NCBI GenBank assembly: GCA_009844405.1
Contig: VYBO01000007.1
Location: forward strand, 1-43,638
Reading direction: 5' to 3'
Source: Acidimicrobiaceae bacterium
GTDB taxonomy: Bacteria; Actinomycetota; Acidimicrobiia; Acidimicrobiales; Aldehydirespiratoraceae
DNA length: 43,638 nucleotides
Positions 39,001-41,146 of this stretch are shown in pieces. Positions within the stretch are counted from its first letter, which is position 1; each line of letters opens with the position of its first letter. The position numbers and the translations under genes are program-made. Below the pieces are notes generated by a model. The model was not told where the DNA came from and made no database searches. It saw nothing but the letters and a program-made list of their open reading frames with translations.

Positions 39001-40662
39001 TACACGCCGGTGGAGCTGGTGGACTTCGTCCTGCGATCCGTGGACGCCGTGGCCCGCGCCGAGTTCGGCCGGGGCCTGAGCGATCCGGGCGTGAACATCC
39101 TCGACCCATTCACCGGCACCGGCACCTTCGTCAACCGCCTGCTCACCCAGCGCGGCGCGGACGGCGAGTACCTGGTCCGCGACGAGGACCTGCCCCGCAA
39201 GTTCCACGGCGCGGCCCGAAGGTTCGCCTCGTCGGGCTCCCCGGAGATCCACGCCAACGAGGTGGTGCTGCTGGCCTACTACCTGGCCGCCCTCAAGATC
39301 GAGGAGGGCTACCGGGACCGCACCGGCGGCTACGAGCCCTTCGAGGGGATCGTGCTCACCGACACGTTCCTCCTGTCCGGCGACGGCCGCCTGCCCGGCA
39401 CCGGCGCCATCGCCGACAACTCGGGCCGCGCCATCGCCCAGAACGAGCTGCCCATCCAGGTGATCGTGGCCAACCCGCCCTGGTCGGCCGGCCAGAAGTC
39501 CGCCGGCGACGACAACCCCAACATCTCCTACCCCCACATCGAGCAACGGGTGCGCGACACCTACGGCCGCCGCCACAAACAGGTCACCGGCCGCGGCGCC
39601 GGCAAGTCAGCAGGCAACCTGTACGTCGAGGCGATCCGCTGGGCGTCGGACCGGATCGGCGGCCCCGACGGCGACGCCACCCGACCCGGGATCGTGGCGT
39701 TCGTGCATCCCAACTCTCTGTCCAACGCGCCGTCGCTGGCGGGAATGCGTGCCGCACTGCGCGATGAGTTCACGAGCGTCTATGTGGTCAATCTGCGCGG
39801 CGATGCGATGAAGTCCGGCGACGAGTTCCGGCGTGAGGGACACAAGATCTTCGGTGCTGGTTCCCGCAACGGCGTGCAGATCACGGTCCTGGTCCGCAAT
39901 CCGGCCATGAGCCCGGATAGTCCTGCGGTTCTGCGTTATGCCGAGGTACCCCAGTACTCGACTCTGAAACAGAAGTTCGACTGGCTCGCCGAACTCGGCG
40001 ACGTGACCAGCGACCAGTTCGAGACGGTCGAACCCAACGACGCCCACGACTGGGTCGACATCACTGACGGCAGCTTCGAGGAACTCATGCCTGTTTGCGA
40101 ACTCGCCAAGAGCGGCCGCTCAGGCTTGAGCGTCATGGATGACCACGCTCTTGGGATCGCGACGAACTGCGACACCTATGTCTACTCGTTCTCCTACGAG
40201 GACCTGTGCACAAGGATCAATCGGCTGATAGCGGCCTACAACGACGCCTTGGAGCTCGTGGAAGCGGGCTGCACCGTCGACGAGTGCACCGGCAACGACG
40301 AACTCGACCGGATCAAGTGGACCGGCACCCTCAAGCAGTCGCTGGCCAAGCGCGAGGAGATCGTATTCGACGAGTCCCGCATCCGGGAGGTCCTGTACCG
40401 GCCGTTCACCAAGCTGTGGCTCTACGAGGACGACCGCATCCTGTCGTCGGTCAAGACCATCTCCAAGATGTTCCCACCCGAATCAGAGAGAGAGAGAGAG
40501 AGAGAGAGAGAGAGAGAGAGAGAGAGAGAGAGAGTACTCCTTCCGATGCAGAACAATCGAGGCCTCAGCTCGCTCCTCGCCACAGGCTGCATCACCGACC
40601 TCAACTTCCTCGGACCCAACCAGGGCGGGTGCCGGGCAATCCCCCGGCGGAGGCGATCCTGA
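36096..40662 (+). CDS. Single-chain restriction-modification enzyme (type ISP-like), out of frame at G10
   Basis: One polypeptide that would cut, translocate along and methylate DNA, as in LlaBIII/LlaGI. Parts in order: Mrr-like nuclease (FGIDLVAELTDEW...LCAVQAKC), helicase lobe 1 (LPCGTGKSVVS, CDEAHRTTG, MTATPRVY), a G10 tract, helicase lobe 2 (KCLTEGVDVPALDAVLFLEP, QAVGRVMRRAPGK), coupler, N6-methylase (DPFTGTGTFVNRLL, VIVANPPWSAGQ) and the start of the target-recognition part. As given, the first frame runs 36096-37697 and ends 73 codons after the tract. The other parts are in the +1 frame from 37432 to 40662. One G fewer, or two more, would join them into about 1521 residues. ATGs at 36096 and 36141 are both possible starts. 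An Ala/Gly/Pro-rich insert (37690-37960) lies in lobe 2. Its usual C-terminal domain is detached at 42886. Confidence 0.85.
37469..37478. repeat. G10 tract: on/off frame switch in the R-M gene
   Basis: Ten consecutive G between the two helicase lobes. Upstream and downstream frames differ here. G9 or G12 would restore one continuous protein (AAGGGAGTRVTTEEAV); G10 gives early termination at 37697. Confidence 0.9.
40485..40534. repeat. (AG)25 microsatellite near the 3' end of the R-M gene
   Basis: Fifty bases of perfect AG repeat, read as alternating Glu-Arg. With 25 units the frame enters U1 and stops at 40662. With 24 or 27 units it enters the frame of U2 (stop 40772). With 23 or 26 units it enters a third frame open to the G10 tract at 40777. 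Confidence 0.95.
40535..40662 (+). other. U1: first alternative C-terminal segment
   Basis: The segment read in the present AG frame: MQNNRGLSSLLATG, then ITDLNFLGPNQGG, then AIPRRRRS and stop. It is the first of a paralogous series sharing N-N/S-N-R/M, F/L-x-A-L-A, (P)DL, Q-x-T/C-R-A and PRRRxS-stop. It resembles the 'LATxxxPDLHxxG..Q' stretch in the recognition half of type ISP enzymes. Its stop overlaps the next start (TGATG), and GGAGG in its last codons could serve as ribosome binding site for U2. Confidence 0.7.
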
Positions 40663-40772
40663 TGGCGAGCCCGTCGAACCGGACCGTGTTCGCGGCGCTG
40701 GCATCGGAGATTCTGCCGGACCTGCACACGCTGGACCCGGCCTGTCGGGCGACGGTCCGGCACAGGCCATGA
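40662..40772 (+). CDS. U2: small paralogous ORF / alternative C-terminus
   Basis: 36 residues, MASPSNRTVFAALASEILPD and onward, ending CRATVRHRP. The start shares one base with the U1 stop and has GGAGG about seven bases upstream. It is also in frame with the R-M gene if the AG tract loses one unit or gains two, with no stop in between. The PRRRPS tail is degenerate here. Confidence 0.6.
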   Translation: MASPSNRTVFAALASEILPDLHTLDPACRATVRHRP

Positions 40773-40776
40773 CCGC

Positions 40777-40786
40777 GGGGGGGGGG
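40777..40786. repeat. G10 tract: second frame selector, between U2 and U3
   Basis: Ten G directly after ATGACCGC at 40769-40776. Entering in the third frame, G10 leads through open sequence to U5, G11 or G8 leads to U3, and G9 or G12 leads to U4. Confidence 0.9.
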
Positions 40787-40788
40787 TC

Positions 40789-40911
40789 TTGGTCGCGTCT
40801 CCCAACAACCGGGCGATCTTCGCAGCCCTCGCGACCGACGTTCCGGCCGACCTCAGCGGTTGCGGGACAAACCAGCCGACCCGCGCCATCCCCAGACGGA
40901 GGCCATCCTGA
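40789..40911 (+). CDS. U3: small paralogous ORF / alternative C-terminus
   Basis: 40 residues from a TTG, LVASPNNRAIFAALATDV onward, ending NQPTRAIPRRRPS. The natural start may instead be the ATG at 40769, which overlaps the U2 stop (ATGA) but is out of frame with U3 at the present G10; G11 or G8 would join them. The last codons again contain GGAGG before the next ATG. Confidence 0.55.
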   Translation: MVASPNNRAIFAALATDVPADLSGCGTNQPTRAIPRRRPS

Positions 40912-41027
40912 TGTCGGGGACGTCCAACATGACCTTCCAGGCCCTCGCCGCGGCCACGATTCCCGATCTGGCCAACATCAACGGCTCGCGCCAGACCAGG
41001 GCTTTGCCCCGGAGGAGGCCGTCATGA
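40911..41027 (+). CDS. U4: small paralogous ORF / alternative C-terminus
   Basis: 38 residues: MSGTSNMTFQALAAATIPDL, then ANINGSRQTRALPRRRPS. The ATG shares one base with the U3 stop and the stop overlaps the U5 start (ATGA). It has the same built-in GGAGG six to seven bases before each junction. Confidence 0.6.
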   Translation: MSGTSNMTFQALAAATIPDLANINGSRQTRALPRRRPS

Positions 41028-41146
41028 TCGCCGGGCCGTCGAACATGGCCATCTTCGGGGCTCTGGCCGCCGCCTGCCTTCCCGACCTGCACCTCATGGG
41101 CCCCGGTCAGCAGACCAGGGCCCTGCCCCGGCGGCAGGCACCGTGA
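41024..41146 (+). CDS. U5: small paralogous ORF / alternative C-terminus
   Basis: 40 residues: MIAGPSNMAIFGALAAACLP, then DLHLMGPGQQTRALPRRQAP. It is nearly identical in DNA to U7 at 42114. The stop shares a base with the next ATG (41146). In the third AG frame with G10 it would form the C-terminus of the R-M protein. Confidence 0.6.
   Translation: MIAGPSNMAIFGALAAACLPDLHLMGPGQQTRALPRRQAP

What the first reader, a model, noticed from the sequence alone, without database searches (positions are those of the whole stretch)
40485..41146. Two-tract reading-frame selector giving five alternative C-termini to an R-M enzyme
Reading all frames by hand after the (AG)25 tract gives an orderly result. 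AG25 ends in U1. AG24/27 reads without a stop into U2. AG23/26 reads 78 codons without a stop to the G10 tract, after which G10 leads to U5, G11/G8 to U3 and G9/G12 to U4, again with no intervening stop. U1-U5 are paralogous segments with a common tail (PRRRxS-stop), each in the frame reachable by one tract setting. Slippage would therefore swap the C-terminal segment of the enzyme, not merely switch it on and off. Simple-sequence on/off switches are well known in R-M genes; a cascade of tracts choosing among tandem C-terminal modules is not something I know of. GC-rich DNA has few stops, so open alternative frames alone are weaker evidence than the coincidence of frames and paralogues.
Basis: partly seen in the sequence, partly recalled or inferred. 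Interest (0 to 1): 0.95.

Follow-up and report, generated by a model that had tools for sequence, protein, structure and literature searches.

The report
Reading-frame switchboard for restriction-enzyme specificity
In this bacterium the gene of a DNA-cutting defence enzyme is followed by five alternative versions of a small piece that is predicted to read DNA, laid out in different reading frames behind two stutter-prone repeats, and slippage of the repeats would pick the version that is made, likely changing the DNA site that the enzyme attacks.

Summary
The gene is a Type ISP restriction-modification homologue. (AG)25 and G10 act as three-way frame selectors; each of the nine tract settings ends in one of five paralogous modules. 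I examined 29 arrays (the window and 28 related). In the 26 without N, 105 of 107 modules are selectable by some tract setting. All 67 tract-free module spacings are 2 mod 3 although lengths run from 95 to 170. Frames that must stay open hold no stops where synonymous shuffles expect 17.9 and 10.9. Unread modules vary mainly at third positions of their own frame. No array repeats a module family among 108 classified modules. Of 23 uncut arrays, 16 fit n tracts, 2n+1 modules outright. The module aligns with the recognition hairpin and Loop VI of LlaGI; the rest of that domain is a separate conserved ORF, 42886-43587. So the 'C-terminus' is an internal segment made terminal. Slippage within a population and changed specificity are inferred. 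Closest precedent: a two-state switch in H. pylori Type IIG enzymes.

The parts
36096..37466 (+). N-terminal part of the enzyme: Mrr-type nuclease and first half of the helicase motor
   Evidence: Pfam Mrr_cat_2 1.9e-28, ResIII 6.5e-18
37469..37478 (+). G10 tract in the helicase part; predicted on/off switch; out of frame as assembled (upstream frame and downstream ORF 37432-40662 differ)
   Evidence: same-site G9-G12 tract in window and L016-L021 (7 of 7), out of frame in 6 of 7
37479..40484 (+). Helicase C, coupler, N6-adenine methyltransferase, first half of target-recognition domain (ORF 37432-40662)
   Evidence: Helicase_C, ISP_coupler 6.4e-27, N6_Mtase at its cut-off, Type_ISP_C positions 2-150; LlaGI 5ffj E 6e-156
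40485..40534 (+). (AG)25, first three-way frame selector
40534..40662 (+). Module U1 (family A, TDLNFLGPNQGG), read at AG25
40641..40772 (+). Module U2 (family B, PDLHTLDPAC), read at AG24/27
40777..40786 (+). G10, second three-way frame selector, reached at AG23/26
40787..40911 (+). Module U3 (family C, ADLSGCGTNQP), G8/G11
40890..41027 (+). Module U4 (family D, PDLANINGSRQT), G9/G12
41009..41146 (+). Module U5 (family E, PDLHLMGPGQQT), G10
42016..42221 (+).
   Evidence: 80% identity over 194 bases to the array
42886..43587 (+). Second gene: remainder of the target-recognition domain (end of core plus guide), 233 aa
   Evidence: Type_ISP_C positions 165-341, 5.8e-48; LlaGI chain 1231-1400, 1.5e-24; present in 21 of 28 loci

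Best explanation
The window encodes a Type ISP restriction-modification homologue whose gene runs into five paralogous recognition modules lying in different reading frames behind (AG)25 and G10, and replication slippage in these tracts would likely decide which module ends the protein and so which DNA sequence it recognises. Shown by sequence: the first tract sends one frame into U1, one into U2 and keeps the third open to the second tract, which sends its three frames into U3, U4 and U5. The same layout recurs in 28 related arrays with one to four tracts of other units (AG, AC, ACCG, G, C). Inferred from homology: each module supplies the beta hairpin and Loop VI of the target-recognition domain, the loop that reads target position +3 in LlaGI. 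Because each module carries its own stop, the rest of the domain has to come from elsewhere, and a conserved separate ORF (42886-43587) encodes exactly that rest; it is predicted to bind in trans. A further G10 tract in the helicase part is predicted to switch the full-length enzyme on and off; as assembled the gene is out of frame there. Untested: that tract lengths vary within a population, that U2-U5 are made, that the halves assemble, and that methylation changes.
For: Reading tree. Family-wide layout: modules in 24 of the 28 loci and in 3 further genus loci; 105 of 107 modules in 26 N-free arrays selectable; in 14 of the 26 arrays no setting is a dead end. Spacing 2 mod 3 in 67 of 67. Stop avoidance. 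Third-position variation in own frame in the five-array set: U2 9/6/18, U3 13/8/27, U4 7/6/25, U5 11/4/27 variable columns at codon positions 1/2/3. No module family twice in an array: 0 of 108 classified (10 unclassified left out), shuffles mean 21.5, lowest 10 of 5000. Orthologous arrays carry AG25, GA7, AC16, GA20, GA15 at tract 1 and G10, G9, G11, G9, G12 at tract 2. 104 of 120 listed homologues end in a module and 96 of 120 show a tract-like peptide at the junction. Loop VI: profile A2 against LlaGI, E 5e-5; chain number plus 164 puts H, G and Q of the aligned stretch on 1368, 1372 and 1373, the residues that the paper names as readers of +3 (the offset is my inference). Split domain.
Against: No read-level or same-species tract variation could be examined; the DNA comes from metagenome assemblies. 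Two modules are not selectable (L031 module 2, L062 module 2). Seven of 23 uncut arrays miss the 2n+1 rule as counted; three of them (L036, L037 second copy, L042) fit if a first module that holds the tract inside it is counted, four (L035, L038, L040, L041) do not. L022 has a tract and then about 170 bases without a module, probably a misassembled end. 16 of 120 homologues do not end in a recognised module and 24 of 120 show no tract peptide. The AlphaFold model is poor (mean pLDDT 61, module below 50), so no structural support. The position-1 module differs among orthologues (A, A, H, G, G), so modules are also exchanged by recombination. As assembled, the window gene is out of frame at 37469.
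Confidence: 0.8

Rival explanations
1. The modules are a store of silent cassettes that reach the expressed position by recombination; the tracts matter little.
For: Position 1 holds family A, A, H, G, G in five otherwise orthologous arrays; modules share conserved ends; the window has a partial copy of the array tail.
Against: A recombination store needs neither 2-mod-3 spacing (67 of 67) nor stop-free foreign frames between modules nor a tract ahead of the modules in 29 of 29 arrays.
Confidence: 0.1
2. The tracts cause transcriptional or ribosomal slippage, so one cell makes several isoforms at once without DNA change.
For: G and C runs of 8-15 are common among the tracts.
Against: Other loci have (ACCG)19 or (AG)25 at the same place, units that suit DNA slippage better (general knowledge, not tested here).
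Confidence: 0.08
3. The units are decaying tandem duplications (a pseudogene tail).
For: The window gene is out of frame at 37469 and has partial copies and inserted genes downstream.
Against: Third-position bias in modules not in frame, no stops, conserved order BCDE in four of five orthologous arrays, the fifth having one unclassified module there.
Confidence: 0.02
4. The modules are short independent ORFs read by termination-reinitiation at TGATG overlaps.
For: U2 and U5 start with ATG at or near the previous stop.
Against: Only 54 of 118 modules have a Met in the first 14 residues, and the residues before it (xEAIL) are conserved in the module frame.
Confidence: 0.03

Closest known systems
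H. pylori Type IIG enzymes JHP1272 (Hpy99XIV) and HP1353-HP1354 (HpyAXVI), PMC3936762
   Same: Two homopolymer tracts: the first switches the gene on and off, the second changes recognition by adding a piece similar to part of the recognition domain (section 25 read).
   Different: Two specificities, the piece is added rather than chosen from a set; no tandem array in three frames, no cascade, no split recognition domain described in what I read.
Type ISP enzymes LlaGI and LlaBIII (5ffj, 4xqk; PMC4872093)
   Same: Same domain order from nuclease to first half of the recognition domain; Loop VI aligns with the module.
   Different: Single polypeptide with one fixed Loop VI; here Loop VI is one of several alternatives and the remainder of the domain is another ORF.
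C-terminal phase variation by simple repeats (H. canadensis PMC2823697; gonococcus PMC5320596; passages read)
   Same: A tract near the 3' end gives different C-termini in the three frames.
   Different: There the frames mostly add a few residues or fuse the next gene; here each frame leads to a conserved paralogous module and tracts are chained.
NgoAV HsdS tract and invertible hsdS loci (PMC9577141 and PMC7394358, search listing and abstract starts only)
   Same: Phase-variable change of R-M specificity.
   Different: Truncation of HsdS or recombination between hsdS copies (recalled and from listings), not selection among frames.

Membership tests
Type ISP restriction-modification enzyme | Nuclease, SF2 helicase, coupler and gamma N6-adenine methyltransferase in one chain | tested here: met
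   Pfam domains and profile alignment to LlaBIII residues 15-1370; in the window the chain is interrupted by the frameshift at 37469
Type ISP restriction-modification enzyme | Whole target-recognition domain in the same single polypeptide | tested here: not met
   Type_ISP_C split into positions 2-150 and 165-341 on two ORFs; so filed as a split-domain derivative of Type ISP, not a plain member
H. pylori-type two-tract specificity switch | First tract on/off, later tract changes a recognition-domain piece | tested here: met
   Sequence layout only: G10 at 37469, (AG)25 and G10 before the modules
H. pylori-type two-tract specificity switch | Methylation motif changes with tract length | not testable with these tools
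   No methylome data available
H. pylori-type two-tract specificity switch | Type IIG enzyme with an added, not alternative, piece | tested here: not met
   Type ISP homologue with mutually exclusive modules
Phase-variable (contingency) locus | Hypermutable tract in or before the coding region that shifts the frame | tested here: met
   Tracts present and frame-shifting
Phase-variable (contingency) locus | Tract length varies within a strain or population | not testable with these tools
   Only between-species differences seen
Shufflon or invertible specificity locus | Site-specific recombinase with inverted repeats | not tested
   No search for inverted repeats or a recombinase was made

The most novel reading that the evidence does not exclude
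A reading-frame decision tree: bacteria use all three frames of a stretch of about 0.6 kb as address space, with chained slippage tracts as ternary branch points (n tracts, 2n+1 outcomes), to retarget a restriction enzyme among three to nine recognition modules; to make an internal segment swappable they moved the constant remainder of the domain into a gene of its own. With the helicase tract as master switch this would be a rolling code against phages.
Probability: 0.65. Interest if true: 0.96.

Novelty: new variant of a known kind. Interest (0 to 1): 0.9.

Why it matters
It would extend tract-driven specificity switching from two states to an ordered set chosen by chained three-way selectors, and show a coding design in which three overlapping frames are all under selection. 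It gives a natural library of interchangeable Loop VI modules (at least nine families by my patterns), directly useful for the open problem of changing restriction-enzyme specificity that PMC4872093 names in its abstract, and a testable explanation for epigenetic and anti-phage diversity in uncultured Acidimicrobiia.

Tried and rejected
AlphaFold of the methyltransferase plus first half of the recognition domain plus U1 (30-row alignment) gave mean pLDDT 61 with the module below 50; I made no fold search from it. A scan of viral contigs with the enzyme found no relative. The closest body pair with different ends (P0067 and P0076, 95% over 1359 aa, modules C and E) shows different products but probably also differs in array content, so I do not use it as proof of slippage. 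In one search the codon-position part used wrong frame starts for U2-U5; it was redone and only one search is cited for that. One search's pooled pairs (160 pairs of modules not in frame: 1231, 679, 2957 differences at codon positions 1, 2, 3) were chosen at 70% or more amino-acid identity and share loci, so they are support, not a test. Literature searches for an earlier description showed none in the listings; the library holds open-licence papers only.

Full report
What the sequence shows. The gene from 36096 to 40662 is a Type ISP restriction-modification homologue: Mrr-type nuclease, helicase, ISP coupler, N6-adenine methyltransferase and the first half of the Type ISP specificity domain (profile positions 2-150 of 342). 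With both tracts treated as free mod 3, the nine settings give five products and no dead end. A third tract, G10 at 37469-37478, separates two frames of the helicase, so the assembled gene is out of frame there.

A split recognition domain. The other half of the specificity domain (positions 165-341) is a separate ORF at 42886-43587. It is found in 21 of the 28 related loci and in L051, L054 and L062, either just downstream of the last module or upstream of the enzyme gene on either strand. The seven loci without it are L016, L020, L022, L024, L030, L039 (the contig ends in or near the gene or array) and L043 (upstream part not on the contig); for the genome of L016 the ORF is at the edge of another contig (G012:C5:156-830). 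Among proteins of similar size 871 relatives were found; the 120 listed are 224-336 aa, and 27 contig lengths are shared with the 120 listed enzymes. In a sample of 395 genomes of the class 24 have a match at any level.

The layout is conserved. Of 28 loci from genome contigs (20 with Acidimicrobi- names, two Dehalococcoidia, the rest 'bacterium' or Candidatus names), 24 hold modules; L020, L030 and L039 end before the array, and L022 has a tract followed by about 170 bases without a module. With three genus loci and the window this makes 29 arrays and 118 modules. Tracts differ at the same place: AG, GA, AC, CA, ACCG, GTCC/CCGA, G, C. In 26 arrays without N, 105 of 107 modules are chosen by some setting; in 14 arrays every setting gives a module. 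Of 23 uncut, N-free arrays 16 have exactly 2n+1 modules for n tracts; L036, the second array of L037 and L042 also fit if a first module with the tract inside its loop is counted; L035, L038, L040 and L041 do not fit.

Is it selected? Spacings without a tract between are 2 mod 3 in 67 of 67 cases, from 95 to 170 bases. Stops are missing where they would block a path: 0 against 17.9 and 0 against 10.9 expected from synonymous shuffles with the gene's codon usage (arrays share ancestry, so the counts are not independent). In five orthologous arrays aligned as DNA, variable columns in U2-U5 concentrate at third positions of each module's own frame, although these four modules are mostly not in frame. 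Arrays never hold the same module family twice (0 of 108; shuffles 10 at least; families are my patterns). Four of the five orthologous arrays end in B, C, D, E; the fifth differs by one unclassified module.

What the module is. A profile of 14 typed homologous ends aligns with LlaGI (E 5e-5). The stretch SDMHVIGGQA of LlaGI lies under the variable stretch DLxxxGxxQ of the modules. Adding 164 to the chain number places H, G and Q on 1368, 1372 and 1373, which PMC4872093 (abstract, passages and sections 16 and 18 read) names as the readers of position +3; hairpin 1347-1358, said there to support Loop VI, is in the module too. The second ORF covers the rest of the core and the guide, and the guide does not read bases in LlaGI. 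The simplest reading is that each module gives another Loop VI and thus another target base or bases around +3. That is inference.

How it would work. Slippage of tract 1 chooses U1, U2 or passage to tract 2; tract 2 chooses U3, U4 or U5. The long linkers, encoded by tract and foreign-frame DNA, would sit in the loop before the first strand of the hairpin. The helicase tract is a likely master switch in the closest group: present in 7 of 7 and out of frame in 6 of 7. PMC3936762 (passage) reports that a Type ISP methyltransferase-specificity part alone methylates in E. coli, so a methylation-only state is possible when the helicase is off; this is an idea only.

Variants and controls. In L097 and L106 (45% identity, another family of the class) one module precedes an AG tract, two follow it, and a frame open from the tract leads into the second half as a fusion; L110 has a similar layout without a tract. 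Three fused relatives at 37-39% identity (L098-L100) have no tract and no array. The genome's other Type ISP gene (C82) has one uninterrupted domain and no tract by my pattern.

Novelty. Tract-driven C-terminal variation is known (PMC2823697, PMC5320596, passages), and a two-tract specificity switch is known in H. pylori (PMC3936762, passages and section 25). The chained selectors, the array of mutually exclusive recognition modules in three frames, and the split domain were not in any listing of my searches. I rate it a new variant of a known kind, far out on that branch.

Noticed in passing
G000:C1:40133-40156 (L006): A second long AG tract in the same genome lies within an ORF that matches Eco57I methylase and Type IIG restriction enzyme models: probably another phase-variable R-M gene.
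   Followed up: partly
G000:C30:47127-47144 (L011): Third long AG/CT tract of the genome; the nearby ORF tested has no Pfam match.
   Followed up: partly
window 30324-30333: G10 tract inside an ABC transporter ORF (28524-31559, minus strand), in frame as assembled.
   Followed up: no
window 42114-42889: Nucleotidyltransferase and HepT-like genes (a likely toxin-antitoxin pair) lie between the array and the second half; the nucleotidyltransferase ORF is fused in frame to a U5-like module.
   Followed up: partly
window 41612-41881 (-): UPF0150-like (HicB-type) ORF between the array and the second half.
   Followed up: no
window 41226-41277 and 43587-43638: Near-identical stretch of about 50 bases (aggccccgcggatag...gggccgtgg) flanks the inserted region and the second ORF (seen by eye).
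   Followed up: no
L037: Two tandem copies of the R-M gene, each with its own tracts and a different module set.
   Followed up: partly
L020, L022, L024 contig ends: Contigs end inside a CA, CT or G tract, as if the tracts break assemblies; G40 at the end of L024.
   Followed up: no
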